Part shown: in pieces, positions 154 through 49,737 of the stretch
Position numbering within the stretch: position 1 is the first letter of the stretch
How the letters are laid out: the number at the start of each line of letters is the position of its first letter
Assembly: GCA_015178975.1 (NCBI GenBank)
Contig: WHVD01000050.1
Span: forward strand, 517,014-581,013
Direction of reading: 5' to 3'
DNA from: Hysterangium stoloniferum
Taxonomy: Eukaryota; Basidiomycota; Agaricomycetes; Hysterangiales; Hysterangiaceae
Length of the DNA stretch: 64,000 nt
Translations under genes and position numbers: made by a program
The notes under the pieces: generated by a model
Told to the model about the DNA's origin: nothing
Database searches by the model: none
Seen by the model: only the letters and a program-made list of their open reading frames with translations

Positions 154-828
154 GGAGGATATCTGAAAACTATTAAGTATACCAAATTCTAATATACTCT
201 AAAGGTCATTTAAACATCTGGGATGTGATTCAAACATAATTTGGTTTTTAAAACTTTTAAAAAGTTTTAAACTCTCTCATACATTACAAACTCAAGAACC
301 TTTCTGGACACAAGTAGACAATAAAAAAAATTAGTAGTTTGAAACACTAATACTTTTAAAAAATAGATACCTTTAGATAGTCCATTCCATGCATATGTAT
401 ATCATTGGCACCTCTAAATACATATGTATTACTTCGGAATGGATCTGTTAATCTAAACAGATTTCTACTTGATTCAACATACCCAGAATATATAGGGGGT
501 TTTACTTAATAAAGGCAGCTGTGGTATGAAAAATTTCCAATAATATTTTACATATTTTACATGGAAATAACTTCATTACAACTTTTAAAAAACAAAGTAC
601 TAATAAAAGTATTAGTAGACATCTGTAAAAGGAAGGAAATTATATACAATGGAATTTGTTAAATAACTATGGGTTGTATAAGATGTAATATGGAGAACTA
701 TTTCTGATGGTTGTTTTTTGATAATATAATTGTTTCAGAATAGATATCACTCTTTAAAGATGGAGTTTTGTAAAAATAAGACTTTTATTAGTAAATATTT
801 GAGATTATAGTAATTATAAACACCCTCC
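154..828 (+). repeat. Solo 675-bp terminal repeat of the 12954-19633 transposon
   Basis: This copy begins GGAGGATATC, ends CACCCTCC and is flanked by the trinucleotide CTG on both sides (151-153 and 829-831), so it has its own 3-bp target duplication. It matches the two terminal repeats of the element at 12954-19633 along its whole length, with more differences than those two show from each other. It is very AT-rich and has no coding potential. It is best read as the product of recombination between the repeats of an older full element, like a solo LTR. A repeat that moves by itself cannot be excluded. Confidence 0.8.
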
Positions 829-9141: not shown

Positions 9142-10775
9142 TCAAATCTGGTAGATGGCTTTGTAGGCCCTGAGAAGAGCGGGAGCATTTTGAAGGTTGT
9201 TACTGTTTAGCCAAGTGTCCTTATCCTTTCCATCATACTTGAAGAGTAATTGATTCGATGTTCCTTACGTCCTACGATGACCTCGACTTCTTACTCCTCT
9301 TCCTTGTTGTTTAGCTCCCTAGGGTTCTCAAGCCGTGCCCTTTGTCTGAATTCCTTGGGGGAGAACTGGTATTTCTTAAGGTGATCTCTGTTGATTACTG
9401 GGTGCATTTGATATTTGGAAGGTATTCTAAGTCAGAAAACTTGGGAGTTGATCTTTTCTAAGACTTTGAACAGTCCCATCCATGTCTGTATGAGTTTCCT
9501 CCCAAATCCTTTAGCTTCAACGAGTTCGAGGGAATGGGGATTGATTAATACGTAGTCTCCTACCACGATTTCTTTCACGAGTCTCCACTTATTATTGTAA
9601 CTATGAGCTTGGGTTTCTTGGGCCAGTGCGATTGAATCTCTCGCTACTTGTCAGTGATTTTCTAGTTCCAGGATCCATTGGTCTGCCATAGGACTGTCTG
9701 ATAGCTCTCTAGAAACTACTGAGTCATTCCCTCCCAGGCAACGAGACATTCCTCTCAGTACATATCCCATTAATACGAAGGCTGGTGCATAGTTCGTCAA
9801 ATTGTAGGTGTGAGCGACTACTTGAGTCCATTTGGACCATTCCTCCTTCAAGGAGGCACAATAAGCCCATAACATCTGTTCTACAATAGCGTTTGCATTC
9901 TCCATTTGGCCATCGGTTTGTGGATGGTGGATGAAGATACCGCGAGTGTGCTTCTGTATACCTTGCAAACTTCTCTCCAAAATGGACAGGTCCATCCCTC
10001 ATCCTGATCGCAGAGTATCCTCGAAGGCAGTCCAAAGGGGGCAGCTACCTTGTTCACAAAGATTTGCGTGAATACCTCTGCTGACAGATCCAAAGTTGTA
10101 GGTTCACAGATAATGAAACATGAGAGTTTGCCTACCGTGATGAAGATGGGTGAATGTACATCCTCTCCAGAGGGTGGTAATCTGGTGATTAAGTCCACCA
10201 AAATGACTTCAAATGGTCTAGAGGGTACATTTGTGGGTCTAAGCGCTCCTTGTCGTGCAGTATGATTAGCTTTGGTTTTCTGGCATGTCACAGCTGCGAG
10301 CGTATGCCACGCAGTCCTGTAGCATTTGGGGCCAGAAGAATGGGTCCTTCATCAGCTGAAATAATCAGTGTCCTCCTGCATGGGCTCGCTCAAAGGGATT
10401 GTCAGGTATTAGCTTGAGTATGGTAGATGTGATATTGCTGGACATGCATATTCGACTTTTCCAGTCCCAATCTCAGAAGTATAGGAGTTTGCTCTTGCCG
10501 ACAAAATAATGGGAAGTAGTTGTTACCACGTTCGGGGAAGTAGAGTCAGTAGCATAGTGATTTCTGAAGGCTGGATCTTTCTGATACCTGTCGCAGAGCT
10601 CCTTAGCGTATTTCTCATCGATTTCTATAAGCAGTTGAGAGTTCGATGAAGTAAAATCTAATTCATCCATTTTGTCATGTTGTGAAAATTCCACTCCATC
10701 TGAGGCACTTCCTCTCTTGTTCCGATAGTTCCACTACCTCATGATGAGTGAAAAAGATTGCCTTTTCAGCACTAT
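9142..10775 (-). pseudogene. Ty3/gypsy integrase with chromodomain (broken)
   Basis: The minus strand encodes, with several frame changes, the integrase zinc-binding stretch (ending CD..QKTKAN near 10290), a DDE catalytic core and a C-terminal chromodomain. The core shows the first Asp in VDLITRLPP (about 10200), the second in ILCDQDEG (about 10005) and the Glu in TDGQMENANAIVEQ (about 9900). The integrase C-terminal block has LVEAKGFGRKLIQTWMG (about 9500), followed by YQMHPVI..HLKKY. The chromodomain remnant ends at the stop at 9142-9144. At least three frameshifts and one internal stop make it non-functional. Chromodomains normally direct integration to heterochromatin. Confidence 0.8.
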
Positions 10776-10776
10776 G

Positions 10777-12235
10777 CGGGGGAGCATCGGGCCCATATGA
10801 TGTCACTGCAGTGTGAACAGCTGTGATAGAGATTAATAAAAGACTGAATAAAATGAATGCGGGCTTACCATGATTTTTCACCAGGGGTGAAAATGAGATG
10901 GATGCAGTCATCCATGAATGGGAAGACTGGCCAACTAGTGTTGAGGCAGGGAGTAATTACAGAAAGAAAGATCAAAGTCATAGTTAGCACAGGAATTTGC
11001 AAGCAAAAAGAACAAGATGGGACTCATGTTCCAAAATGGCCTTCATGGTAAGATACGAACATCACTCAGGGGGAATAAAAAAAGATACAAGATGTACCAC
11101 TCAACATGATGTCATATGGTCCCTGTAAGCTAAGCGGGGGAGCACCAGGCCCATATGACGTCAGTGAACAGCTGTGATAGAGATTAATAAAATGAATGAA
11201 TAAAACGAATGCGAGCTTACTGTGATTGTGCACCAGGGGTGAAAATGAGATGGATGCAGTCAAGCAAGAATGGGAAGAACGGCCTGCTAGTGTTGTGGCG
11301 GGGAGTAACTATGGAAAGAATTAAAGTCATAGTTAGCATAGGAATTCGTAGGCAAAAAGGACAAAATGGGACTCCGTTCCAAACTGGCCTTCATGGTAAG
11401 AGACGAGTGTTATTGGAGCGACTTGATTTGGTGTCCCACATCCAGGGGAATAAAAACAATACGAGGTGTACCACTCAACATGACATCATATGGTCCCTGT
11501 AAGCTAAGCGGGGGAGCACCGGGCCCATATGATGTCACTGCAGGGTGAACAGCTGTGGTAGAGATTAATAAAAGAATGAATAAAGTCAAAGCGAGCTTAC
11601 CGTGATTTTTCACCAGGCATTAAAATGAGGTAGATGCAGTCATGCATGAATGGGAAGAAAGGCCCATTAGTGTTGAGGCGGGGAGTAACTACAGAAAGAA
11701 TTAAAGTCATAGTTAGCATAGGAATTCATAGGCAAAACAGACAAAATGGGACTCACGCTCCAAACTGGCCTTCACAGTAAGAGATGAATGTTATTGGAGT
11801 GACTTGGTTTGGTGTCCCACATCCAGGGAAATAAAAAAGATATGAAGTGTACCACTCAACATGACGTCATATGGTCCCTGTAAGCTAAGCGGGGGAGCGC
11901 CAGGCCCATATGACGTCAGTGAACAGCTGTGATAGAGATTAATAAAACGAATGAATAAAACGAATGTGAGCTTACCGTGATTGTGCACCAGGGGTGAAAA
12001 TGAGATGGATGGAGTCATGCATGAACGGGAAGAAAGGCCAACTCGTGTTGAGGCAGGGAGTAACTACAGAAAGACTTAAAGTCATCGTTAGCATAGGAAT
12101 TTGTAGGCAAAATGGACAAATGGGACTCACGTTCCAAAATGGGCTTCATGGTAAGAGACGAATGTTATTGGAGTGACTTGGTTTGGTGTCCCATATCCAG
12201 GGGAATAAAAAAGATACGAGGTGTGGCCTCGGGAT
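10777..12235 (-). repeat. Satellite array A: ~358-381 bp units with CRE-tipped hairpins
   Basis: Three full units and one partial unit, with hairpins at about 10777-10808 (half), 11107-11163, 11480-11538 and 11861-11918. Each hairpin is TGACGTCATATGG(T)CCC, a GC-rich loop, then GGGCCCATATGACGTCA. The unit also holds two conserved intron-like segments (see the findings). The array is in the same orientation relative to the gypsy element as array B at 44305-47010. Confidence 0.85.
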
Positions 12236-12239
12236 TCGA

Positions 12240-12407
12240 TTCCTCATGTTCTGTGATCATGACTCTGCATTTTTGAAATCTGTAATAACATTCTCGGTGT
12301 GTCTGATTCCAAGCGTTGACAAAGGCTTCCTGCAAGTTGATGGCATAGGTCTGTAATCTTAGGCAAGGGATGGCGAGCTTCGTCTGGGTCCAGTGATCCT
12401 CGACCAA
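12240..12407 (-). pseudogene. Unrecognised coding fragment at the edge of satellite array A
   Basis: About 55 codons on the minus strand run VEDHWTQTKLAIP...AFVNAWNQTHRECYYRFQ before the frame enters satellite sequence. The biased, non-repetitive composition looks like real coding sequence, possibly the end of a transposase or of a gene captured at the array boundary. I do not recognise it. Confidence 0.3.
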
Positions 12408-12687: not shown

Positions 12688-12953
12688 ATGGCCAAGTAAG
12701 TAGTTATTATGGCTATTGAAGATTTTCATAGATTATTGGCTGTCTAACATGTTTACAGAGGAACACCAGGTGTAACCATCCAATATCAGGGCTCTGACAA
12801 GTCAGTCCACCCCGTACGAGATGAAAAAAATGGCAAGTGGCTATGTGGAGGCTGTGAGAGTTCGTTTGAGCAGATCAGCGGGCTTCATAAACATGCAAAG
12901 ACACATCCCCTTCCTGCCGCTCTTCCTGATCCTAGATCCCCAAAATTGGCTAT
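12688..12953 (+). CDS. 5' end of a C2H2-finger gene interrupted by the transposon
   Basis: The start ATG at 12688 opens an 8-nt exon ending at 12695. A 63-bp intron follows (GTAAG donor, TCTAAC branch point, TTTACAG acceptor at 12758). Exon 2 starts MAKGTPG across the junction and contains a textbook C2H2 zinc finger, C-x2-C-x12-H-x3-H (LCGGCESSFEQISGLHKH then AKTH), near 12850-12905. The frame is cut by the 6.68-kb transposon at 12954. After the element, coding sequence of a RecQ-like helicase begins within 50 bp, so this is probably the amino-terminal part of that same gene. The link is inferred from position and the shared 3-bp duplication. Confidence 0.65.
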
Positions 12954-13627
12954 GGAGGATATCTGAAAACTATTAAGTATACCAAATTCTAATATACTCT
13001 AAAGGTCATTTAAACATCTGGGATGTGATTCAAACATAATTGGTTTTTAAAACTTTCAAAAAGTTTTAAACTCTCTCATACATTACAAACTAAAGAATCT
13101 TTCTGGACACGAGTAGACAATAAAAAAAATTAGTAGTTTGAAACACTAATACTTTTAAAAAGTAGATACCTTTAGATAGTCCATTCCATGCATATGTATA
13201 TCATTGGCACCTCTAAATACATATGTATTACTTTGGAATGGATCTGTCAATCTGAACAGATTTCTACTTGATTCAACATACCCAGAATATATAGGTAATT
13301 TCACTTAATAAAGAAGGCCATAGGATGAAAAATTTCCAATGACATCTCATATATTTTACTAGGAAATAACTACATTACAGCTTTTAAAAGACAAAGTACT
13401 AATAAAAGTATTAGTAGACATCTGTAAAAGGAAGGAAATTATATACAATAGAATTTGTTAAATAACTATGGGTTGTATAAGATGTAATATGGAGAACTAT
13501 TTCTGATGGTTGTTTTTTGATGATATAATTGTTTCAGAATAGATATCACTATTTAAAGATGGAGTTTTGTAAAAATAAGACTTTTATTAGTAAATATTTG
13601 AGATTATAGTAATTATAAACACCCTCC
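12954..13627 (+). repeat. 5' terminal direct repeat of the DDE transposon
   Basis: It begins GGAGGATATCTG and ends ACACCCTCC. It differs from the 3' copy at only a handful of positions, for example ATTGGTTTT against ATTTTGTTTT. TAT flanks it on both sides (12951-12953 and 13628-13630). Confidence 0.85.
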
Positions 13628-13665
13628 TATATGAAGGTCTTGATTTTCAAATTGAAAAAAATGTA

Positions 13666-15582
13666 ATGAGTGTACAACTGTTACAGTCTCCCATGGCAAA
13701 TGAGGCACTCAAAGAATGTATTGATATTTTAAAAGAGTTCAGTATACCTGCTGTTCTGGATACTAAATACCACAATCCTTTAGAAGCCATTAGACTGTCT
13801 TTTGAGTCCTCTAATACTTCATATATTTTCTGTGACAATGTAATTCTTTGGTCTATTGGTGGAGACTTTAGAGATGTCATATATGGAAAATGCAAAGTAT
13901 ATTTCTCACTTTCCTTTAAGATAAAGTTATTACACTCAGATACTCTCAAGAATAATGATATTGCACCCACAAATACTCCTTACTTTTCTTATAAAATTTC
14001 ATTATCTGAGGTACCTATTAAAAACATAATAAAATTCCTAAGAGAAACCATTTGCGATGAAATTATATTACATGATATAGATATCTCCCAAGATATCTCC
14101 TATGTTACTACTAGAAAAGATGTTCTTAAGCATATATTAAATCTTGGAATAAGAAAAGAAGATATTATAGATGATAGAAAAAAGGTTGGAGATAATTGTA
14201 TATCATTTTACAATGAAGATCACTCATATAAGATCAAAGTATATAACAAATTTGTACAAATGCTAGAAAGCTGTGACACTGGAGGCACCCCAAGGTTTTT
14301 GGAGTTGAAAAACCTTATGAAAATCCTACTATTTGGCCAAATTTTCTAAGAATTCTTTGAACTGATAAATTGATTGGGAATTTTAAGTTTTAGTAAGATT
14401 TTCCAAACTGGAAAATCATATCTGAAAACTTTAAATATTTGTATTAGAAAATCTGAGGAAACATCATCAGTCAAAGTTTCTTGATACAAATTTTCAAGGT
14501 TTTCAGATATGATTTCCCACTTTGGAAAATCCTACTAAAACTTAAAATTTTCAAACAATTTATCAGTTCAAAGAATTCTTAGAAAAGTTGGCCAAATATT
14601 AGGATTTTTAGAAGGTTTTCAAACTTCCAAAACATTGGGGTGCCTCCAGTGTGATGTAATGACTACTCTAGGATCTAGAATCCACAATTTATATGTTGAT
14701 CCTACTGAGTCAATGTCACAATCACTAGAAAGATTAAAGTATGTGGGAATGACAAGGATTGAAGTTAAGTTTTATGGTAACAAAGTATTCTCAAAATCAT
14801 GGTATATAAACAACTTCATCAGTGTTAGAAACAATTTTAATGGATGTAGATTCTATAGAAGTTCTTTTGAAGAGCAATGGAGAGCACTTGTGGATAACAT
14901 TTATTCCAAATCAATAATAATGGTTTACTTAGAAGATAGAAAGTTTTTCACATATTGTCATTGGTGGAATTCTTTAACAGGAAAGATCCAAGGAGGCTTT
15001 CAAAAGAATGTAAATAAGGAAGATATAATTCAATTAATTTCTAACTATAGTTTTAATGGAAATACTACCAAATTTGTTAGATTTGATGATGGGATAACCA
15101 TAGTAGATGAATACAAAAGGTCACAAAAGGGTATTACACTTATACCTGGTCCCAGAGGAGGACTCTATCCTAGGGTTGAGAGTTCATTTTCACCAAGTGA
15201 CATAGGACTTGTGGAATACAAAGGAGTAAAGCTTGGTTGGGTTGATACTCATATAACTAAAAGGTCACCTCCCCTTGTCCCAATTCATAAAGTTAGTAAG
15301 AATTTAGAAGAAGTCAGTGATTTGAGAATATCTATGTACAAGGTAGGATATTCAATTCTTAAAGAAAATTCAAAATATCAAGTCATATCAAAAGGTCAAC
15401 TTTCATATAGGGGAAAGAATTGTACTGTTATAGAAGTCTTAGACAAAAATTCAGAAGTACTGAAGGTAAGGTGTGGAGAATCCTTACAAAATGTTGTAAA
15501 AGATATGAAAGACAAGACCTATATTGAAACTGGTAAGATAATAATGAGACATGGAGGACAGAAAGATATACTTATAAAATGA
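13666..15582 (+). pseudogene. Long unrecognised transposon gene, split by a CACTA-type MITE
   Basis: The open frame from 13666 runs into the MITE at 14277 and resumes in the same frame directly after the second TGA target copy at 14655, ending at the stop of 15580-15582. Without the MITE and one TGA copy the length is exactly 513 codons including the stop, so the two halves were one ~512-aa gene. The protein is lysine-, isoleucine- and asparagine-rich. The second half has a conserved-looking centre (LIPGPRGGLYPRVESS, then VEYKGVKLGWVDTHI). No motif of a known enzyme was recognised. Its position as the first and longest gene suggests a core accessory function of the element. MITE read-through would end shortly after the insertion. 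Confidence 0.6.
14277..14651. mobile_element. 375-bp CACTA-type foldback MITE, TSD TGA
   Basis: Termini are CACTGGAGGCACCCCAA and its reverse complement, with inverted repeats of about 170 bp each, so almost the whole element is a hairpin. It is flanked by TGA at 14274-14276 and 14652-14654. CACTG ends and 3-bp duplications are typical of the EnSpm/CACTA superfamily. It has no coding capacity and interrupts the gene at 13666-15582. Confidence 0.85.
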
Positions 15583-15613
15583 AAAAAGTTCAATCTGTTG
15601 CTTCTGTGGCAGA

Positions 15614-15925
15614 ATGGATCTCCTTGAGACCAATATCACTAACCTCAATGAACAACATATAAATAATATATGTGAGATAGTAGTCTTATCATTGTCACTA
15701 GATCTCAAAATGAAAAAGATTCTTATAGCAGTTGTAGAACTTAATATCAAACTTGTCGAGAAAGGTTCTTCAAAACTTGATGAGAAATCTTGTGGTAGTG
15801 ATGTTATATTCTTCCTTCTTAATATTGGAAAAGATCTAGAACATAAATTATTTTCCAAGGTAAATATAGATAATGAGGTAGTGGAGAAATTAGTTGAATA
15901 TATAAGAATAACTGAAAATCCCTAA
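15614..15925 (+). CDS. 103-aa unrecognised transposon protein
   Basis: The ATG at 15614 lies 32 bp after the stop of the preceding gene on the same strand; the frame ends at 15925, just before the foldback element at 15941. The product is a predicted mostly helical small acidic protein (MDLLETNITNLNEQHINNIC..., leucine/isoleucine periodicity, several glutamate/lysine pairs). It has no recognisable catalytic or metal-binding motif. The close spacing and AT-rich codon use match the other genes of the element. It could instead be a 3' exon of the upstream gene, but no clear splice sites support that. Confidence 0.45.
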   Translation: MDLLETNITNLNEQHINNICEIVVLSLSLDLKMKKILIAVVELNIKLVEKGSSKLDEKSCGSDVIFFLLNIGKDLEHKLFSKVNIDNEVVEKLVEYIRITENP

Positions 15926-15940
15926 AATATTACTACAGTA

Positions 15941-16534
15941 TTTCCCCATAAATACTATTTTTAAAAGAAATTTCAACCAACCTATTTCCCCACAACCCCT
16001 CTTTTTAAAAGTAATCCAAAAATCCTTTAAAATCCAATGATAAAATTAAAAATCTGATGTGGTGATGTAGTGGTGACATAGGCTTAGGGGTCTACCTTAG
16101 ACCCTATTCCACATGGATATTTTCTATTGGTATTTTAGGGGGTTTTGAGTATCTTTTTCATGGAAATATTCAATGGTGATGTAGCTCATCTATTCTTTTA
16201 AGTTACTCTATCTCCTATTTCTTCCTACCCAAAAAAGGAAGAAAGAATAGAGTTGAAAAAAGAAATCATAGAGTTGAAGGAGCATTAGAGCTACATCACC
16301 ATTGAATATTTCCATGAAAAAGATACTCAAAACCCCCTAAAATACCAATAGAAAATATCCATGTGGAATAGGGTCTAAGGTAGACCCCTAAGCCTATGTC
16401 ACCACTACATCACCACATCAGATTTTTAATTTTGTCATTGGATTTTAAAGGATTTTTGGATTATTTTTAAAAAGAGGGGTTGTGGGGAAATAGGTTGGTT
16501 GAAATTTTTTTTAAAAATAGGATTTATGGGGAAA
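15941..16534. mobile_element. 594-bp foldback element with TA flanks
   Basis: The arms begin TTTCCCCATAAAT and are near-perfect inverted copies of about 260 bp, separated by a short loop around 16200-16270. TA lies on both sides (15939-15940 and 16535-16536), as for Tc1/mariner-derived MITEs. The end lies a few bases from the stop of the minus-strand gene at 16538-16891. Confidence 0.75.
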
Positions 16535-16537
16535 TAA

Positions 16538-16891
16538 TTAGGGTTCTACTAAATAAATTTGAGGGTTCCCAGTTATTCCAAGATCTCTTTTTATTTCTTC
16601 AAATGTAGATGGAAATCTTGATAAAATCTCTTCAATATTTACTTCCTCTTTAGGATGAGAAAACTCATAGATACACATGATAAACATTCCACCTTCACCC
16701 TTAGGAGCATCTTCATGTTTCTGGATATTGAATGTTATTGGACATCCACTTCTTCTTATTAACCTCTTAATATCTCCCAAGTAGCCACTCTCTGTAGTTA
16801 TATGATGTCGTCTACACTGTTCCAAGATCCTTTCTTTTCTAACTTTATATCCAAGTACCTTAGGGAAGTTCATATTATCTAATTTCATCAT
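16538..16891 (-). CDS. 117-aa unrecognised transposon protein
   Basis: The minus-strand frame starts at 16891 (MMKLDNMNFPKVLGYKVRKE) and ends at the border of the foldback element. It has a basic amino half with RRHH and LIRRSGCP and an acidic, proline-containing carboxyl half (EEVNIEEILSRFPSTFEEIK). The preceding minus-strand gene ends only 17 bp upstream at 16909, so the two may be co-transcribed or be exons of one gene. No domain was recognised. The carboxyl end may have been changed by the foldback insertion, since the stop lies a few bases from its edge. Confidence 0.45.
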   Translation of the reverse strand: MMKLDNMNFPKVLGYKVRKERILEQCRRHHITTESGYLGDIKRLIRRSGCPITFNIQKHEDAPKGEGGMFIMCIYEFSHPKEEVNIEEILSRFPSTFEEIKRDLGITGNPQIYLVEP

Positions 16892-16908
16892 GTAGAGCTT
16901 TTAAAATT

Positions 16909-17565
16909 TCAGTTTAAGAAGGTGTTTCTAATTTTAGATTTAAGTTGATCAAATGAATCATTATCCATAATATCAAGTATTTTAGATTTATATTCTATTT
17001 CAAATACTTCTTCCTCTTCTTCATCACTAGGGATATAACTCTTATTCCCCCATGAAGTTTTAGGCTTGTGACTCTTAGAAGTATCTTTCCTAATAAATCT
17101 GTACCATTTCCAAAATATTCCTACAGAGACTATTCCAAATATCCCATGATAGTCCTCATCTAGAAAGACTACCTGCATGTATTCTTTTAACTGATCCTCT
17201 GCCTTTTCTACTTGTTCTTCTAACTTCCCTGGATTGATTAACCTCTTATTTTCCACTATCAAATATTTACATTCATATAGACTTTGTGCTTCCTTTTTAT
17301 AATGGATAACAACAAAGTCTGGTATAAATAGCTTAGGTATCTCTACATCATCCCTATTGGTTATACTATATTGTAAGGATAGCTGGGGATTAACCAATAA
17401 TGGTGGTTGTAAAAGTGATACTAGTCTAACATTCCATGGTGCATACCAAAAGCATTCTAAGTTGTCAGGGTTTATAGAAGTACTTTCAGCAGCATTTACA
17501 GATATCTTTAAGATTTGCTCCATTAGACTTACATACTTACCTAAATAATATACATAAGATTTCAA
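16909..17565 (-). CDS. 218-aa PD-(D/E)XK-like transposon protein
   Basis: The minus-strand frame starts at 17565. The central region (residues about 80-110) contains FIPDFVVIHYKKEAQSLYE, then CKYLIVENKRL. The spacing of PD, an intervening beta-strand and ENK matches the PD-(D/E)XK nuclease core (motif II Asp, motif III E-x-K). A helix-rich stretch with EEQVEKAEDQLKEYMQ follows, then a second hydrophobic strand (GIFGIVSVGIFWKWYRF). The carboxyl end has an acidic run (EEEEEVFE). PD-(D/E)XK proteins accompany DDE transposases in other element groups (for example YqaJ-type proteins in ISL2EU). A role in transposition is an inference. The divergent start faces the transposase at 17625, leaving a 59-bp shared 5' region. 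Confidence 0.6.
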   Translation of the reverse strand: MKSYVYYLGKYVSLMEQILKISVNAAESTSINPDNLECFWYAPWNVRLVSLLQPPLLVNPQLSLQYSITNRDDVEIPKLFIPDFVVIHYKKEAQSLYECKYLIVENKRLINPGKLEEQVEKAEDQLKEYMQVVFLDEDYHGIFGIVSVGIFWKWYRFIRKDTSKSHKPKTSWGNKSYIPSDEEEEEVFEIEYKSKILDIMDNDSFDQLKSKIRNTFLN

Positions 17566-17624
17566 TATTCTCTATTAAATTGAATATTTCCAAATTGGCC
17601 TAGTATTGTATACTTACCATATCA

Positions 17625-18860
17625 ATGTCTCCTCTAAATGAGGAGTTTAATAAGTTAATGGACCAACAATGGAAGTTCCTTTATAAGGAATGGCCTCAGA
17701 TCAAGCCATCCAAGTATCACAGGTCTGATATCAAACCTATTGATAAAATTAGTCACATTAAGGATATTGTTCTTCAGAGACTTGGTATTATTCCAGTCTT
17801 TTTCTTCCTTGTTGTGGTCTTTGCCACCCAAGATTATCCTGGACCCTATAGAAATGTGGAGAAAGGACTTTTAATACTATATCAACTACTTCAAGGCTGT
17901 TCCATAAATGATATGGGAAACTTTATACCTAGAAGTAGTTATTATGATATGTTTAGAAAATTCTATGAAAAACAAGGTAATGATCTTGATAAAAGGATCT
18001 CAACTATGCTCATTTCTATGTTCTCAACTATTGATATACGCATTCATTCTGCACAGAAAAATCCTCCATTGTTTAGACATGTAACATTAATGATAGATGG
18101 TCATGATACTAGAGAAAGTGTTATTGGTGAGAAGAGTGAAGATATGTATTCATATAAACTCAAGAAATCTGGACTTCGGACACAAGTTTGTATTGATATA
18201 AATGGCATGGTTCTATTCACATCAAAGTCAGCACCCTGTAAAGATAATTCAGATGGAGTCATGTCTGTAAAGATGAAATTGGAAAAGTATATAGACAAAC
18301 TAGATTGTATTGCTTTAGATGGGGGATATCCCTTACACCTTACAAAGATAACAAGTAATACAGAATTAGATATGATTAACTTCTGTATACCTATACGTAA
18401 ATCCAAAGGTATAGAATTGTCAAAGGAAGAGAGTACCTTTAACAAAATGTTTGGTAGTTTCAGGTCTAAGATTGAAGCTACTTTTGGAGAGCTGGCTACC
18501 ACATTTAAGAAGCTCAGTAATGAAGGAGGTGTTAGAGTTTCTGATGATGAGGTATTCACAACCCAGTTAAAGCTTGGATGTCTCTTATTAAATGTGAAGA
18601 AGTTTGTAATTTTAGGTGGTATTCAACCTCAACCTCATCACTCTTCATGGTTATCTTCAGAGTTTGACTACTGGAAAGATGAAAATATTGAAACATATGA
18701 AAATCTCCCATCATTGACAGATAGTAGAAGTAATGCTCAGGAGATGCTCAAGCTTCAAAGAAATTTTCTGAGTATGGAGTTAGGTGATGATGAAGATATG
18801 GATGAGACAGATGAGGCACATGAAATTGAGGAAATAATAAACCATATGGAAGGGATATGA
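17625..18860 (+). CDS. DDE transposase (IS5/PIF-Harbinger DDE_4-like), 411 aa
   Basis: The frame is open from ATG 17625 to the stop at 18858-18860. An amino-terminal helix-turn-helix-like segment (residues about 77-112, VEKGLLILYQLLQGCSINDM) precedes the catalytic core. Candidate acidic residues are D158 (LMIDGHD), D232 (ALDGGYPL) and E284 (RSKIEATFGEL), with the hallmark SYKLKKSGLRTQVCIDINGM between the first two. This layout is that of DDE_4/IS5-like transposases of PIF/Harbinger and relatives, which usually make 3-bp duplications, consistent with the TAT here. The acidic tail (GDDEDMDETDEAHEIEE) is unusual. No stop or frameshift is seen, so the enzyme could be functional. The assignment to a named superfamily is from motif reading only. 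Confidence 0.75.
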   Translation: MSPLNEEFNKLMDQQWKFLYKEWPQIKPSKYHRSDIKPIDKISHIKDIVLQRLGIIPVFFFLVVVFATQDYPGPYRNVEKGLLILYQLLQGCSINDMGNFIPRSSYYDMFRKFYEKQGNDLDKRISTMLISMFSTIDIRIHSAQKNPPLFRHVTLMIDGHDTRESVIGEKSEDMYSYKLKKSGLRTQVCIDINGMVLFTSKSAPCKDNSDGVMSVKMKLEKYIDKLDCIALDGGYPLHLTKITSNTELDMINFCIPIRKSKGIELSKEESTFNKMFGSFRSKIEATFGELATTFKKLSNEGGVRVSDDEVFTTQLKLGCLLLNVKKFVILGGIQPQPHHSSWLSSEFDYWKDENIETYENLPSLTDSRSNAQEMLKLQRNFLSMELGDDEDMDETDEAHEIEEIINHMEGI

Positions 18861-18958
18861 AGATGTAACTTGGCAAGGAGTGAGGAGTTTTGATACCACA
18901 GAGTGTATAGATGAATACTGGAAAAAGAAAGGAGAAGAAATTTGATAAAATTCCAGTA

Positions 18959-19633
18959 GGAGGATATCTGAAAACTATTAAGTATACCAAATTCTAATAT
19001 ACTCTAAAGGTCATTTAAACATCTGGGATGTGATTCAAACATAATTTTGTTTTTAAAACTTTCAAAAAGTTTTAAACTCTCTCATACATTACAAACTAAA
19101 GAATCTTTCTGGACACGAGTAGACAATAAAAAAAATTAGTAGTTGGAAACACTAATACTTTTAAAAAGTAGATACCTTTAGATAGTCCATTCCATGCATA
19201 TGTATATCATTGGCACCTCTAAATACATATGTATTACTTTGGAATGGATCTGTCAATCTGAACAGATTTCTACTTGATTCAACATACCCAGAATATATAG
19301 GTAATTTCACTTAATAAAGAAGGCCATAGGATGAAAAATTTCCAATGACATCTCATATATTTTACTAGGAAATAACTACATTACAGCTTTTAAAAGACAA
19401 AGTACTAATAAAAGTATTAGTAGACATCTGTAAAAGAAAGGAAATTATATACAATAGAATTTGTTAAATAACTATGGGTTGTATAAGATGTAATATGGAG
19501 AACTATTTCTGATGGTTGTTTTTTGATGATATAATTGTTTCAGAATAGATATCACTATTTAAAGATGGAGTTTTGTAAAAATAAGACTTTTATTAGTAAA
19601 TATTTGAGATTATAGTAATCATAAACACCCTCC
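18959..19633 (+). repeat. 3' terminal direct repeat of the DDE transposon
   Basis: Nearly identical to the 5' repeat. The base triplet on its inner side is GTA and on its outer side TAT, so it has no target duplication of its own. This supports one element rather than two separately inserted copies. Confidence 0.85.
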
Positions 19634-19680
19634 TATATTGGACGGTATGTTTCTGGATGATCTCCTTCCTGAAAGCATGA

Positions 19681-24647: not shown

Positions 24648-27006
24648 CTAAAGCTCAGTGTTGAAAATATCATCAAATACCTGAAAGGTAAGGTGTCCAT
24701 TTAAAGTTTCATGATTGAATGATGGCACAGGAAAACCAGGTGCCCAATTTTCCAGATCCAGTTCATGGTAAGTACACTCCGTGCGACCTCTAAAAATAGC
24801 CTCACGCATAGAGGTAAGGTGCCCTTTCAAGGAAGCGAATTGGGGGGTGAATGTGGGAAGTAATTTCGATTTAGATATAAAGGTGGTCTTATAGTGTTCT
24901 AAGGCTTGACCACCCAATGTCAACCATTCCTGTAGTGGTGGATCGTCAATTTCTTTCCCGTCCTGATAATGAGCTGTGAAAAACATCAAGACATGAAAAA
25001 ATGACTTGAGGTCATGCCGGTACAAGTGCTTGACAGTTGAACTTGGGTCCATCAAATCAATGGACATAAAAGGCCATGTTCCCATTCACTGTTTCGATTC
25101 TGGATGGTTTTCCGTCCCATCCACATAGCATGCCATATCGAAATCATTTAAAACACCAAAAATATCATCCTTTTCACGTTGAAACATCAAGTTCCCAAGA
25201 CTGATGTCACGATGAAGGATTTTTGCGATTCTGTATAACCAATCATGGGCTACAATTCCACGTCAGGAAATATATGGCATGTGTTATGAAACAACCAACT
25301 CACCCTTCAAGGTTTGATGAAACACATCCTTTACTTCCCTGGCATCCTTCAGCTCTGTAAGGGGAAAAAGCTCATTTTGAAGAAGAATCCTCAATTCCCG
25401 AAGCTCATACTTATTGGGCTCCTTCGAATTCAAAAACGTAACAATTCGGCAATGAGCATCCTTTGTATCGGGGGGGAAGGTGTGGGAATATAAAATGCTA
25501 GGAAAATGCTTTTGAACCCAATAATGCTTTGGATGAGAGGAGGCGATGTCTCGTGCCCGGTAGATATATATCCATTCTGGTATTCTTTTCTGACTTGGCC
25601 AGCTGACTTTGATAACGGCGACAGTGGACCAAGATGTGGCATCAACTCTGAAAACAGACATGCCACGCCCGATTAATGCATGTTGGCAAAAGATAATCTT
25701 TTCCACAGTGACTGTGCGGCCATCTGGGAGGTGCAGTCTTTCTCCAACAAACAGCTCTGTGAAAGGCTGCCTAGCATGGTTGTGTTTTGTTTTGAGAAAG
25801 GGGGATATAAATTTCGGGGTGATTTCAGTTGCAAGACCGTGCCCTCGGGGATCCAGCCTACCGTATGCTATTAGCATTCCAACAAATTTCGTCCTATCTG
25901 TAATAAAGTCCAGTGGTTGCGATCGGACGGTCAGGCCATGATGATAATATCGAAGTTGAATTTTAAAATCGGTAATCAAATAACTGATGATATGATTCAG
26001 TAGATTCCCATTCGAGAACATCTCGAGCGCATAACCGGTGCACTGCAGATCACTCTCATCAATTTCAATACCAACCTTGGTCCTTTTTGACACTTGCTCC
26101 AAATTGCTAGATGAAGACCACTTCTGCTGAGACTCAGAGCTATATAGTTTCATGTCTTGATCCTTTTCTTGTGTGTCCCTCATTGTGGCTGTTCTTGTAC
26201 TGCGACGAGTAGGAAGGAGTAAGTTGTTTGACTTTGAATTAGATGAACCAGCTCTTGCTGGGATCTGCTCTTCACTGGGAGTGTTTGTTTTACTAGTCGA
26301 TTCTACTCGGACAGGCCAGGAAGTGTTTGTTTTACTAGTCGATTCTACTCGGACAGATCAGGATAGACTTACCTGTCTTAGAAGAAAGTTTCCTGGATCC
26401 CTTGGACTTCAGGTACTCTGTGAGGCTTTTCACAACCAGCTTGAATTCCCAGAAATCCAACACCTCGCCCCAGTGGAAGGCATAAATCTGTTCTGGCCCA
26501 TTCTTTGACAAGTTATCGGGGTTGATTCTTCCTCCTTGCTTAAATGCCTCTGTAAGCACCCCCAATACATCCGGCTTACGTGCAGCATACGATCCCCAGA
26601 TCAGGCTTCCATCATTGCGACACAGCCGTCTTTCTTTCAACCCTATTTCATTGAAGCCATAGTTGACCATTTCCGAAAAAGGAGCATAATGCTCAGATTC
26701 ATCAGAGACTGGCTCACTGTACTTGTCCATGAGCTTTTTAAAGCCTTTGGTCTTAACGATTCTGTCCGCTTGTGCCATGGCCTCTGGGTCAAGTTTGAAG
26801 TTAAGGATGTGTTCTAAAAATTCTTCAAACTCGATTGTGGCACAATTCTGGAGACCTTGCTGAAGATATGGATAGTAATCTGACACTTTAGTCTTTATAT
26901 GGAAAGCTGAATTACTTCCAGACCCTCGGTTGAGGGGGGTGTTGTGTATGGAGGGACTCAGAGCCTTGGTCTGTGAGGGAGGTGTTATAGGTCTTGTGCA
27001 GGCCAT
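24648..27006 (-). pseudogene. FunK1-type fungal protein kinase, copy 1, one nonsense codon
   Basis: ATG at 27006 opens exon 1, which contains KPDVLG and, further on, WGEVLDFWEFKLV, a PD...ExK pair. An intron (about 26372-26189; GTAAGT donor) holds a 42-bp tandem duplication. Exon 2 (26188-25284) carries the kinase N-lobe with LHLPDGRTVTVEKII and VAVIKVSW. After a small intron the catalytic loop AKILHRDIS lies at about 25230-25205. The activation segment ends KQ, then TGA (25086-25088), then MGTWPFMSID, where relatives read RTGTWPFMS. The C-lobe continues to 24648 with HDLKSFFHVL. FunK1 is a large fungal family related to eukaryotic kinases. The stop fits CGA to TGA, and the neighbouring Met fits ACG to ATG. 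Confidence 0.75.
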
Positions 27007-32719: not shown

Positions 32720-35700
32720 ATGCACCCCTCTGATTCACCTCATAAACCATCTCCTGTGTGCCCTTCAGAACCACAACAAACTCTGGGCTCTCATGTTCTG
32801 AAAGCTGTTTTACACGATCTACATGGCTCATTCCACGTGGAAGAGACTAATAAGTTTCTTCGCAAGCTCATGCCTCTCTCTGAAGACCAGATCCAGAAAA
32901 TCTATGAACACCTCCTGAAAAAAAGGCTGTATGACGTGGAAGTTAAGAGATGGAAAAATATGCCAAGATTTCAATCAGACGAAGAGGATATGTACCCCCG
33001 TTTTGTGGAGATTGCCAATGCCATCAATGATTATGCCGAGTCCATGGAGTGGACAGAGGTGAAAGGTGGATGGCGGGACGTGCATAGTAGAGCGCCGAAG
33101 TCTACGAGTAATACGGCGCCATCGATACGGCCGGATTCTGTGTTTGCCTCTAAGAACACTAACATGAGCACTCTCCAGAAAAAAATAGACGAGCTAACGG
33201 CCAGGCAAGAAGCGAAAGAAAAAGAAATGGTTAGAAATGACGAGGTATTAAGAGAAGAAATTGAAAAGGTGGAGCGTTTTTGCTTAAAGGATATATATAT
33301 TATATTGACGGAATGCTTAGTTGGAAGATGACATGGTATGGGATATTTTACTATGGATTATGGTTGGTTCTAACACCTTTTTAGACAAAACTCTCTCATG
33401 TTTGGTGGTTACAAGTATGCGCGGTCGTCGAAATGAAAGCGAAAGCAACGGAGAATGATAGCATCGAAGCATTGCAGCAGCTTTGCTGCTATATGCGACA
33501 GATGTTCCGGGAGCAGTTGGATAGACGTTTTGCTTTCGGATTTACACTTTGCTTTGATCAAGTTTCTGTTTTCTTATGTGACCGGTCTGGGGTGCTAGGG
33601 ACGAGGGAGGCGATTAACATTCATACGGTGAGTTTTCAACTTTCCTCCTTTCTCACTGAACTTGACATGAACGATACTTAAGAGCCCAAAGAGTTTGATT
33701 CGAGTAATTGGCAGCTTCTCTATCCTCAAGCCTCATGAACTTGGTTGGGATCCTAGTATGAAAATTTATTATCCAGAAAACAGGCCTCATCTATCGCTTC
33801 CCTCTTACGAATTTCCATTTGAAAGGGTGAAAATGGGGTTGAGCCTTTACCGACTGAACTGGGTTATTAATTCAGCTGTGGCCCACCTTGGGACACATGA
33901 GGATTTTCTCACTGTACGTGCAATTAGTATTGTGGGCTCTGAAGTCATGTGTGGACGAGCGAGTATTGTATGGGAAGTTGTCAAGCTACTGGACCATCAG
34001 AGGCGTGATAAGGTATGTGTAACAGTTTAATGTAACGTTTGGACTGGTTCGACTTTTAATAGAAAGTGTATGTTTTGAAACAAGGCTGGCAGCGGTTTGA
34101 AGGGTTACACTCAATCTCGGGTGAGCCCTTTGAGGCAAGGGCGCATTGGATGGCAGGTCTACACCAAGGTCGGATTTATTCCTCCGAGCACGTGTTGTCA
34201 AATGATGGTGTGCTGGACACTACTTTGGAACACATCCGCAAAGGTTTAGGTGGAAATAACGAGGAGCGACCATTGTCTATGCCAACTAGTAAACCCAAGG
34301 CTATCAACTCCCTCATCCAGAATGATATCGATCAAGAGTCAAACTTACAGGAGCAAATTGTGATTCAAAATGGCCAATTGGAGTATCAAAGTCGGGATCC
34401 GTACCTGGTGTCCCGTGTTTTTACTCGGATCATAATGGAAACTTGGGGCTGGTCTATCAAGTACTTTAAGGATAACTTGGAGCTTCTGACTGTAATTCGA
34501 GATGCGGTGCAAGGTTTATTATTGTGCATATGTTTTTTTGTGACGGTTTTATTGAAATGGTTGTTATGTGTTAGATCATAAGGATTTCTATCTCAGCGGT
34601 GTCCTTCATCGTGACGTTAGCATAGGAAACATCCTAATATGTCCCAGAGAAGGCAATAGATCAGAAGTATGTGGACGACTGATCGATCTTGACCATGGGA
34701 AGCAGACCTGGAAATTTTTGTCGACAAGTGAAATTCCTCCCAGGAAAGAACTAGACGGTGTTTTGGCAAATTCATATCACTTCACTTTTCAAGTTGAGGG
34801 TGTATTCGCTGAGGAAGATGTTGTTCGCACAGTGTTGGGTGCTTTTAATCTGAAGCCGACCCTTGCCGCAGACTATATTAAGGCTTCTCTGGATGGGGCA
34901 TCTCGCAAAGTGACAAAAGAGGAGCCTTGTACCCTTGAAGATCTTCATTGGCAACGTTTTGTACGTTTATACAAGTTCCTTTTGCTGATTGACTTGACGA
35001 CTTGGCAGGTGGAAAAATTACCAACGTTCCAAGATCGAAGACCACGACCAGGCTTCCGAACGGTGATTTTTCATCAGTTGACTTGATTTGTGCAGTATTT
35101 TGATATTCCTCTAAGGGCACAGGGCACAGTTCCATACATGAGCCATGAGGTACTTGCAAGGAATTATAGTAGGTCATATATACTGCGAGGGGATGGAAAG
35201 CAATGGGTACACGATGCTGCTAACGATATGGAGTCTTTTTTGTGGGTGATCATTTACCTTGCGATAACACGGGGATCTCCTGGAGGGTTTCGTCGTGATG
35301 AACTGGATGCAGGCGACTTCCAGAACGTTGATTTGCGTAAAGTGACCAATCGATTCTTCGATCATTTGGACAAGTTAGAGGAAGAAAAACAAAACCTATT
35401 CACAGTCTCTGAAGATGGTGGAAACGGAGAAAGAATCCTCGAGAATGATATACTCAAGAGTTTCCACCCATACTTCAAACCACTGAAGCGTTTAGTGCGG
35501 GACTGGTACAAACTACTTGTGATGGCTTTCCGATGGCGGGCATCTGAATATCGTTTTATCCACGATTACGTCCTAAACCTTCTCACAAAGGAAATCGAAG
35601 CACTCGGATCGGAAACTATGACGGACCATATGACGGACCCTATATATGATCATAAAACTACTATTGAACTGGAACGCCGTCAGCGACGCCAAGATTTCAT

Positions 35701-35803
35701 CTCGAACGCCTTTCTGGATATCGATTCTGTATCCAACAATGAAAGTTTGGATGACGACAAAGACGGGAATGAGGAGAACAGCCAAGTCCAAGTCTCAATC
35801 TGA
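32720..35803 (+). CDS. FunK1-type fungal protein kinase, copy 3, apparently intact multi-exon
   Basis: ATG 32720 starts exon 1, which ends in a charged helix (TLQKKIDELTARQEAKEKEM). An intron from about 33274 to 33384 (CTAAC branch, TTTTTAG) leads to KLSHVWWLQVCAVVEMKAKA. Together with the earlier RPDSVF this gives a PD...ExK pair. Further exons carry the N-lobe (LKQGWQRFEGLHS near 34070), the catalytic loop GVLHRDVSIGNIL (about 34600-34630), LIDLDHG in place of DFG, the activation segment GTVPYMSHEVL (35127-35160) and C-lobe NDMESFLWVIIYLA. Introns have GT-AG borders. I find no stop within the joined exons, but exact junctions were not verified everywhere. The acidic tail ends at 35803. The kinase is predicted active (HRD and D-x-D present). 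Confidence 0.75.
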
Positions 35804-47902: not shown

Positions 47903-48425
47903 GGCTATGACCAGACTGCAGGGGGGTTTGGGTGCAGAGGTTTGGTTTTAATGATGATTGGGAGGATGCTTAAAGATATCAAAGTGAGGAGGAGTCCATT
48001 TGAGGAGATGCTGATGGGATGTTGTTATAAAGGAAAAGATGAATATAATATATATTATTGTCATCCACAGTGGGCCCATCCACTTCCCTAATTTCATACA
48101 TGAAATACATACAAGGGGGGGGGTAGACATATAATTTCGTGGAAGGGTTTTTTGGATAAACCCTAATTTGTGGGAAAAAAGAAGGATTTTTTGTGTGCAT
48201 GTGTGGAAATAATACATATATATAATATAATATAATATACAATATTTGGAGACTTCAAAAGACTGAGATGAGACGTCTTGGCAGTGAACTGATTTTGGAG
48301 TGTGTGACGGATTTCCTGAAGAGGATCTACCTGCAAATTCTTCCTACTTTTCATCAGGAAAGTAGTAAGAATCACTCCCTGTAAGCTAAGGGGGGGAGGG
48401 CTGGGGCCATATGACGTCCCTGGGT
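47903..48425 (+). repeat. Dispersed repeat R2, copy 2, with degenerate CRE hairpin
   Basis: Collinear with 27205-27715. The hairpin part (48377-48422) reads GTAAGCTAAGGGGGGGAGGG, where the other copy has GTAAGCTAAGCAGGGGAGCG, so two or three C positions are G here. Confidence 0.8.
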
Positions 48426-48447
48426 TAAACCGGTGGTAGATGTATAT

Positions 48448-48540
48448 TTAGAAATTGGGCGCTAGTATGGGGACAGATGCCCTGCATTGACGCCCATCTC
48501 AGAGGGGATTCATTTTCTAGAGTGGCATGGCGACTGATTC
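48448..48540 (+). repeat. SINE-like dispersed repeat, copy 4 of 6 (truncated)
   Basis: It keeps the first ~90 bp and reads GGCATGGCGAC where other copies have GGCATCGCGAC. It is joined to the HEAT-repeat remnant. Confidence 0.75.
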
Positions 48541-48715
48541 TGATCACATTCTCACCCACTGCACCTTGCTCTGAAAGTTTTGCCAGTGCTGATAATCTGC
48601 AGGTTTGAATGTTCTCGTCAGAGTCCTTCAGCAGTGTGACAAAGTCACAAATGGCACCATGTAGGCCACTTCCAAGTCTAGCTGAAAACTGCATATTATA
48701 TTGCACCCCCATTTC
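48535..48715 (-). pseudogene. HEAT/ARM-repeat gene remnant
   Basis: The minus strand encodes LHGAICDFVTLLKDSDENIQ, then TCRLSALAKLSEQ. This is one complete HEAT-type helical repeat and the start of another, typical of agaricomycete HEAT-repeat proteins with LLKDSD...ALAKLSEQ units. Upstream the frame passes into the 72-bp minisatellite and downstream into the SINE-like repeat, so only one or two repeats survive. No function can be assigned from a single repeat. Confidence 0.6.
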
Positions 48716-48719
48716 CATT

Positions 48720-49480
48720 GTGATTGCCTGTGCATGGGTGTTCATCATGGATGAACACCTGCATATGTACAATATAGGCAGCTTCAGCACTAAAGTTGCC
48801 TGTGCACAGGTGTTCATCCTGGATGAACACCTGCATATGCGCAATACAGGCAGCTTAGGCGCTAAAGTTGCCTGTGCAAGAGTGTTCATCCTGGATGAAC
48901 ACCTGCATATGCGCAATATAGGCAGTTTCAGCACTAAAGTTGCCTGTGCATGGGTGTTCATCCTGGATGAACACTTGCATATGCGCAATACAGGCCGCTT
49001 CGGCGCTAAAGTTGCCTGGATGAACATCTGCATACGTGCAATACAGGCAGCTTCGGCGCTAACGTTGCCCATGCACAGGTGTTCATCCTGGATGAACACC
49101 TGCATATGCGCAATACAAGCAGCTTCGGCACTAAAGTTGCCTGTGCATGGGTGTTCATCCTGGATGAACACCTGTATATGCGCAATACAGGCAGCTTCGG
49201 CACTAAAGTTGCCTGTGCACAGGTGTTCATCCTGGATGAACAGCTGCATATGCGCAATACAGGCAGCTTCGGCGCTAAAGTTGCCTGTGCACAGGTGTTC
49301 ATCTTGGATGAACAGCTGCATATGCCCAATACAGGCAGCTTCGGCCCTAAAGTTCCCTGTGCAAGGGTGTTCATCCTGGATGAACAGCTGCATACACCCA
49401 ATACAGGCAGCTTTGGCTCTAAAGTTGCCTGTACACAGGTGTTCATCCTGGATGAACACCTGCATACACGCAACGTTCGC
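48720..49480. repeat. 72-bp minisatellite, about ten units, open in several frames
   Basis: Units of exactly 72 bp carry the perfect inverted repeat GTTCATCC-T-GGATGAAC, the palindrome GCATATGC and GCTTCGGCGCTAAAGTTGCC. One unit near 49010-49060 is shortened. Because 72 is a multiple of three, frames persist: a plus-strand frame with VFILDEHLHMRNTGSFGAKV units and a minus-strand frame with QLFIQDEHLCTGNFSAEAAC units both stay open for almost 300 codons or more. No start context or splice evidence marks either as real. Confidence 0.9.
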
Positions 49481-49514
49481 CCTAGAGTAAAAGTTGCATG
49501 CACACAGCTGTTCA

Positions 49515-49605
49515 TCCTGGTCCCTAGATGCCCTACCCTATGTAAAATGGATCTGGTCCCTAGATGTTGCACCCTATGTAAAATGGATCTGGTCCCTAGA
49601 TGAAT
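49515..49605. repeat. Two to three ~40-bp tandem repeats
   Basis: The unit is TGGTCCCTAGATG...CCCTATGTAAAATGGATC. It directly follows the minisatellite. Confidence 0.8.
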
Positions 49606-49737
49606 CCTACCAGACCCATATAACCTGGCAATTCTGATACCACCATAATCATCAGGAACAATGCTATATCAAATATTGTTATGGGGTATAATTTATGTTA
49701 TTCTTCAAGCAAGAGATTCACCACAACTGCGGCCCTG

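What the first reader, a model, noticed from the sequence alone, without database searches (positions are those of the whole stretch)
12954..19633. A DDE transposon with LTR-like 675-bp direct terminal repeats and 3-bp target duplications
Seen: near-identical ~675-bp direct repeats, each with GGAGG...CCTCC ends; TAT on both outer sides; a DDE transposase (D158, D232, E284), a PD-(D/E)XK-like protein and three unrecognised proteins inside; no reverse transcriptase. A solo repeat at 154-828 has its own CTG duplication, so the unit has moved more than once. Known: cut-and-paste elements with DDE_4-type transposases normally have short terminal inverted repeats, and LTR-like direct repeats belong to retroelements. 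Inference: an undescribed group whose repeats act as compound ends, able to leave solo repeats by recombination. The inner flank of the 3' repeat (GTA) lacks a duplication, arguing against two independent MITE insertions.
Basis: partly seen in the sequence, partly recalled or inferred. Interest (0 to 1): 0.88.

Follow-up and report, generated by a model that had tools for sequence, protein, structure and literature searches.

The report
Fungal DNA transposon flanked by LTR-like repeats
A probably fungal jumping gene of the cut-and-paste type is built like a retrovirus, with a long, nearly identical repeat at each end that also occurs alone many times, and it carries a protein predicted to resemble the DNA-nicking replication starter of bacterial plasmids and filamentous phages.

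Summary
Window 12954-19633 is a DDE transposon (PF13359) between two direct repeats (674 and 675 bp, GGAGG...CCTCC ends) inside a 3-bp duplication. The genome (111 Mb) holds more copies: 9 of 9 with both ends readable are repeat-INT-repeat (INT = internal region) with a matching 3-bp duplication. Two belong to a second family: transposase about 50% identical, unrelated repeats, similar termini. All 24 solo repeats read have their own duplication; 827 repeat ends stand against about 20 INT-repeat junctions. The two repeats of a copy agree at 98.5-100% (8 complete pairs), and in 7 of 8 are mutual nearest kin among the element repeats read, so they do not evolve as separate ends; solos as near or nearer exist. 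LTR-like DNA transposons are known (KolobokP, animals, 2022). This one differs in transposase (DDE_Tnp_4 plus chromodomain), host and cargo. New: the large ORF1, broken here but intact elsewhere and under purifying selection, is predicted to have the fold of Rep_trans rolling-circle initiators, with residues at the catalytic positions kept in 40 or 41 of 41 relatives; profile-profile tests did not confirm homology. A one-repeat circular intermediate is the favoured, unproven mechanism.

The parts
12951..12953 (.). left target-site duplication TAT
   Evidence: matches 19634-19636
12954..13627 (+). 5' LTR-like direct repeat, 674 bp, GGAGG...CCTCC
13628..13637 (+). start of INT, near-constant inner junction (TATATGAAGG; TTAATGAAGG, TTGATGAAGG or TAATGGATGT/TAATAGATGT in other copies)
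13666..14349 (+). ORF1, first piece (Rep_trans-like protein, broken here)
14277..14649 (.). foldback insertion splitting ORF1, absent from C71, C441, C113
14635..15582 (+). ORF1, second piece
15614..15925 (+). ORF2, 103 aa, no family
15939..16536 (.). large palindrome, arms 15939-16187 and 16288-16536, 98% complementary; present in the four family-A copies read in full
16538..16891 (-). ORF3, 117 aa, no family
16909..17565 (-). ORF4, PD-(D/E)XK-like by sequence pattern (unconfirmed)
17625..18860 (+). DDE_Tnp_4 transposase; chromodomain lost by a 35-bp deletion
18951..18958 (+). end of INT, constant inner junction TTCCAGTA
18959..19633 (+). 3' LTR-like direct repeat, 675 bp
19634..19636 (.). 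right target-site duplication TAT
154..828 (+). solo repeat with CTG duplication

Best explanation
The element is a composite-like DNA transposon. Each repeat is a complete transposon end pair (short inverted termini GGAGG/CCTCC), so that a repeat alone and repeat-INT-repeat can both be moved by the element's DDE_Tnp_4 transposase with 3-bp duplications (anatomy shown, activity inferred). The two repeats of a copy do not evolve as separate ends: they are made from, or corrected to, one sequence (shown by comparison between copies). Most likely route (inferred): the element passes through a circle with one repeat plus INT; the transposase joins both ends of that single repeat to a target in a replicative, cointegrate-like step, which gives repeat-INT-repeat with two identical repeats. 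ORF1, a Rep_trans-like protein with a tyrosine active site, would nick such a circle, perhaps at the conserved palindrome, to amplify it (inferred, least certain).
For: 3-bp duplications at 9 of 9 copies with both ends readable and 24 of 24 solos read. Pairs against the next element repeat read: C441 0/675 (next 12/675), C152 0/675 (next 8/593), C1 10/671 (next 41/671), C113 6/675 (next 9/593), C71 1/675; C356 4/620 and C141 6/510, 82% between these two. In the whole-genome search C441's own two repeats are among four perfect matches, and after ten close matches identity drops to 98%. Repeats and INTs have different histories: C71 and window repeats are about 99% identical while their INTs fall to 52-80% from the palindrome to ORF4. 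ORF1 domain: the first three PDB entries are RepDE, a sister entry and RepSTK1; residues at catalytic positions kept in 40-41 of 41; dN/dS 0.22-0.23. ORF1 and palindrome are both in family A and both absent from the two B copies.
Against: Gene conversion between the two repeats, or recombination of a circle with a solo of the same subtype, would give similar pairs. Solos matter: the window's 5' repeat is nearer to solos and to C441b than to its own 3' repeat, C71's 3' repeat is tied with a solo, eight places elsewhere match C441's repeat at 99-100%, two of them as perfectly as its own pair, and eight other places match C356's 5' repeat better than its own 3' repeat does. Family B has no ORF1, yet its pairs are equally alike, so ORF1 is not needed in cis. 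No multimer was seen at the 17 listed 5' junctions. Profile and HMM tests of ORF1 against Rep_trans and gene II sets were not significant. No circle was observed.
Confidence: 0.45

Rival explanations
1. Ordinary cut-and-paste of the whole element by its outermost ends; the two repeats are kept alike by gene conversion or by recombination of an excised circle with a solo of the same subtype, and solos are left by repeat-repeat recombination, as in LTR retrotransposons. ORF1 is a helper or passenger.
For: Needs no new step; INT blocks are mosaic between copies, so exchange among copies is frequent; identical solos of C441's subtype probably exist.
Against: Repeat ends outnumber INT-3' repeat junctions about 40 to 1 (827 and 20), and 24 of 30 loci with a repeat at least 99% like the window's are solos, although full copies whose repeats differ by 1.5% still exist (C1).
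Confidence: 0.34
2. The repeat is the real transposon (a MITE-like unit mobilised by the transposase) and composites form when two units happen to flank INT.
For: Repeats alone are by far the commonest form; 24 of 24 solos read have duplications; repeats have their own inverted termini in both families.
Against: Inner junctions would then vary and inner repeat ends would show their own duplications; they do not. Paired repeats occur in two families with unrelated repeat sequences.
Confidence: 0.1
3. A retroelement or retroelement hybrid.
For: LTR-like repeats; ORFs that I recognise as Gypsy-like (recalled, not scanned) lie beside copies C441 and C356.
Against: No reverse transcriptase, RNase H or Gag family in the ORFs scanned inside the element; the Gypsy-like ORFs lie outside the repeats; repeat ends are not TG...CA.
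Confidence: 0.01
4. About ORF1 alone: a TBP-like fold without nicking activity (for example a DNA-binding protein) whose likeness to Rep_trans is convergent.
Against: Residues at the catalytic positions (D57, D139, E240; Y193; K191, K195, Q198; R238) are present in 40 or 41 of 41 relatives, as expected of an enzyme.
Confidence: 0.3

Closest known systems
KolobokP (Kojima & Bao 2022, PMC9587614)
   Same: DDD/E transposase and a further protein between long terminal direct repeats (about 450 or 660 bp) with their own short inverted ends; solo repeats with duplications; composite-like.
   Different: KolobokP: Kolobok transposase, animals, His-Me finger nuclease, multimers common. Here: DDE_Tnp_4 plus chromodomain, fungal-type host, no His-Me family hit, Rep_trans-like ORF1, palindrome, no multimer seen.
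PHIS superfamily (PIF/Harbinger, ISL2EU, Pangu, Nuwa; PMC4482050)
   Same: DDE transposase of the DDE_Tnp_4/IS5-like kind (kinship of PF13359 with PHIS recalled), mostly AT-rich 3-bp duplications, G-rich termini.
   Different: Those have inverted termini, group-specific duplication motifs and mostly a Myb/SANT or YqaJ second ORF; here direct repeats, unfixed duplications, chromodomain and ORF1.
Rep_trans rolling-circle initiators (RepDE, RepSTK1; PMC4797284) and filamentous phage gene II protein (phrog_702)
   Same: Predicted fold, and order and identity of most catalytic residues; one fungal ORF1 (P0189) matches phrog_702 at E 1.6e-6.
   Different: Encoded by a transposon in a fungal-type genome; profile homology not significant; 45 residues from Tyr to the R-x-E motif against 21 in RepDE; the first residue of motif I is D, not R. 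Those Rep_trans proteins scanned here that matched a PHROG matched phrog_453, not phrog_702.
IS26/IS6 pseudo-compound transposons (as summarised in PMC9587614)
   Same: Directly repeated ends, proposed circular translocatable unit.
   Different: IS26 carries its transposase inside the repeat (recalled); here the genes lie between the repeats.

Membership tests
KolobokP | long terminal direct repeats with own inverted termini around a DDE gene | tested here: met
KolobokP | Kolobok transposase (C/DxxH motif between second D and E) | tested here: not met
   no C/DxxH between D232 and E284 of the L062 and window copies, read by eye; Pfam hit is DDE_Tnp_4
KolobokP | His-Me finger nuclease | tested here: not met
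   no such Pfam or NCBIfam hit in the ORFs scanned
PHIS / PIF-Harbinger | DDE_Tnp_4-type transposase | tested here: met
   PF13359 E 4.9e-10; an IS5 model only E 0.025
PHIS / PIF-Harbinger | TWA duplications | tested here: not met
   24 solos: TAT 5, ATA 5, TAA 4, TTG 2, TAG 2, six others once each
PHIS / PIF-Harbinger | second ORF with Myb/SANT (YqaJ in ISL2EU) | tested here: not met
   no such Pfam hit among the ORFs of L062 and L064 that were scanned
PHIS / PIF-Harbinger | transposase groups with PHIS in a tree | not tested
   no PHIS reference set was at hand
LTR retrotransposon | reverse transcriptase | tested here: not met
Rep_trans (PF02486) | PF02486 HMM match | tested here: not met
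   none in the own genome at E <= 10; the control rings in B. subtilis
Rep_trans (PF02486) | fold of the catalytic domain (TBP-like) | tested here: met
Rep_trans (PF02486) | catalytic Tyr, metal acids, K and R-x-E motifs | tested here: met
   Y193, K191, K195, Q198, R238 41/41; D57, D139, E240 40/41; reference residues from passages of PMC4797284; correspondence read from order and spacing
Rep_trans (PF02486) | nicking activity | not testable with these tools
   needs protein

The most novel reading that the evidence does not exclude
A eukaryotic DDE transposon that carries its own rolling-circle initiator of the Rep_trans class, which PMC13107129 (passages) describes as apparently restricted to bacteria apart from its distant archaeal kin Rep-Arvir. 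It multiplies as a one-repeat circle nicked at its large palindrome and returns to the chromosome by transposase-driven cointegration, which rebuilds its LTR-like ends at each jump: another way, beside reverse transcription and gene conversion, of making identical terminal repeats.
Probability: 0.28. Interest if true: 0.93.

Novelty: new variant of a known kind. Interest (0 to 1): 0.77.

Why it matters
It shows that the LTR-like plan of DNA transposons is not peculiar to KolobokP but also occurs on a different transposase in a fungal-type genome, and that the two repeats of a copy share one history, which makes the open question of how such elements keep their ends directly testable. If ORF1 is a real Rep_trans enzyme, this is a class of replication initiator not reported from eukaryotes in the papers seen, joined to a DDE transposase in one element. 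The abundant solo repeats could also be mistaken for retrotransposon LTRs or MITEs in annotation.

Tried and rejected
Two independent MITE insertions: rejected by near-constant inner junctions in other copies. TAT inside the 5' repeat as a duplication: rejected, it is INT sequence. Palindrome as an independent MITE: its arm has 46 matches (40 of 42 candidates scored); by reading coordinates I count 15 loci with an inverted pair, each on a contig stretch with a transposase, ORF1 or ORF4 hit, so it is an element part. Retroelement: no RT.

Rows dropped: of ten 5' regions fetched, L067 (C464) and L071 (C177) gave no repeat match and L070, L074, L076 gave partial repeats. C212 has a truncated 3' repeat, and its 5' repeat is nearer to three other copies' repeats than to its own 3' remnant (17/539). 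C537's pair is partial (13/297 differences). C212 and C537 are left out of the 8 complete pairs; C537 is kept in the duplication count. C367 and C323 (456 kb) had only one end read. Solos were drawn from the best hits to the window's repeat, so nearer solos of C113, C1, C152 and C141 cannot be excluded; for C441 a later search found some, which, made me lower two odds.
Full report
WHAT IS THERE. The window lies in a 111.1-Mb genome of 554 contigs. The element runs from 12954 to 19633 between TAT duplications. Order: repeat, ORF1 (two pieces), ORF2, a 598-bp palindrome, ORF3 and ORF4 on the minus strand, transposase, repeat. The window copy is damaged: a foldback insertion splits ORF1 and a 35-bp deletion removes the chromodomain. 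Copy C441 has ORF1 (512 aa) and transposase (451 aa, with PF00385 chromodomain) open throughout.

OTHER COPIES. The repeat gave 1099 first-look candidates, of which the best 40 were scored, at 99-100%. The first 24 bases match 827 places at up to 3 mismatches (control 0). The INT-3' repeat junction occurs 20 times at up to 1 mismatch and the 5' junction 17 times at up to 3. The transposase search gave 72 matches, pieces included: eight others cover residues 1-408 at 96-99%; diverged ones reach 52% (C356), 49% and 47%. Copies read at both ends: window TAT, C71 AAT, C441 AAT, C113 ATT, C1 TAT, C152 AAT, C537 TTA, and family B: C356 TGG, C141 TAA: 9 of 9 match. Of 30 loci cut for the repeat, 6 belong to elements and 24 are solos; 24 of 24 solos have a 3-bp duplication, expected 1.7% each by chance. 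A third diverged copy, C1:1534146 (L066), showed no repeat pair in the 10 kb read.

A SECOND FAMILY. C356 carries a transposase 49-52% identical to that of the window family, 620-bp repeats unrelated to the window's except at the termini (GGAGGATA...TATCCTCC), its own duplication, and a small ORF resembling one in C441. Its repeat is also abundant (986 first-look candidates, 40 scored at 97-100%). The direct-repeat plan is thus older than the repeat sequences.

THE TWO REPEATS OF A COPY SHARE ONE HISTORY. Differences within copies: window 4/674, C71 1/675, C441 0/675, C113 6/675, C1 10/671, C152 0/675, C356 4/620, C141 6/510. Among the element repeats read, 7 of these 8 pairs are mutual nearest neighbours (the two B pairs were compared only with each other); the window pair is not, because its 5' repeat equals a widespread solo sequence and lies nearer to C441b in the tree. 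If left and right ends had separate histories, left ends would group with left. Solos qualify this: C71's 3' repeat is tied with one solo; C441's repeat has eight further matches at 99-100% (two perfect), none near a transposase or ORF1 hit and so probably solos, then a drop to 98%; and eight places match C356's 5' repeat better than its own partner. Each subtype thus seems to comprise few composites and several solos. Repeats are also shared across INTs: C71 and window repeats are about 99% identical, yet their INTs fall to 52-80% from the palindrome to ORF4. INTs are mosaics: window and C441 98-100% over ORF1, window and C113 about 99% over most of the ORF4 region, C71, C441 and C113 98.8-100% over the transposase.

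PALINDROME. The four family-A copies read in full have a near-perfect inverted repeat at the same place (arms 249, 289, 246, 289 nt; 98.4-100%), although the copies differ there by up to 25-50%. The arms stay complementary while the sequence changes. Both family-B copies lack it and lack ORF1. An origin or nicking site for ORF1 is a guess that fits.

MECHANISM. Shown: an architecture conserved in two families, 3-bp duplications, paired repeats with one history, abundant solos. Inferred: circle with one repeat, cointegrate-like insertion, amplification by ORF1. Gene conversion, or recombination with solos, plus ordinary cut-and-paste remains a serious rival. Five solos (L002-L006) are identical to the window's 5' repeat on five contigs with different flanks, which needs either fast repeat-repeat recombination or movement of the repeat itself.

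KNOWN OR NEW. KolobokP (PMC9587614; parts named above) already shows long terminal direct repeats with inverted ends, solos and multimers on Kolobok transposases of animals, and its authors raise both solo movement and circles. This element differs in transposase family, chromodomain, host, cargo and lack of observed multimers. PHIS membership is plausible by the DDE_Tnp_4 match but fails on duplication motif and second ORF as stated in PMC4482050 (passages). Paper searches found no earlier account, within an open-licence library only.

Noticed in passing
G000:C441:4683-9658 (L013, L014): Two 5' repeats with ORF1 pieces face each other with the same outer flank, inverted, near a contig start: a palindromic dimer or an assembly artefact.
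   Followed up: no
window 14277-14649: Foldback element with inverted CACTGGAGGCACCCCAA ends inserted in ORF1.
   Followed up: partly
window 10772-12295: Direct repeats with about 350-380-bp spacing just left of the element.
   Followed up: no
window 48425-49668: Repetitive ORFs on both strands with recurring units such as 'FIQDEHLCTGNF'.
   Followed up: no
window 25284-26357, 34063-35803, 57011-58123: Fungal protein kinase (PF17667) gene pieces.
   Followed up: partly
L032 (C152) and L045 (C332): Same outer 3' flank at two element copies, suggesting a segmental duplication.
   Followed up: no
L062:2731-3210 and L064:6652-7143: A 159-163 aa ORF of unknown family shared by copy C441 and family B, absent from the window copy's ORF list.
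   Followed up: partly
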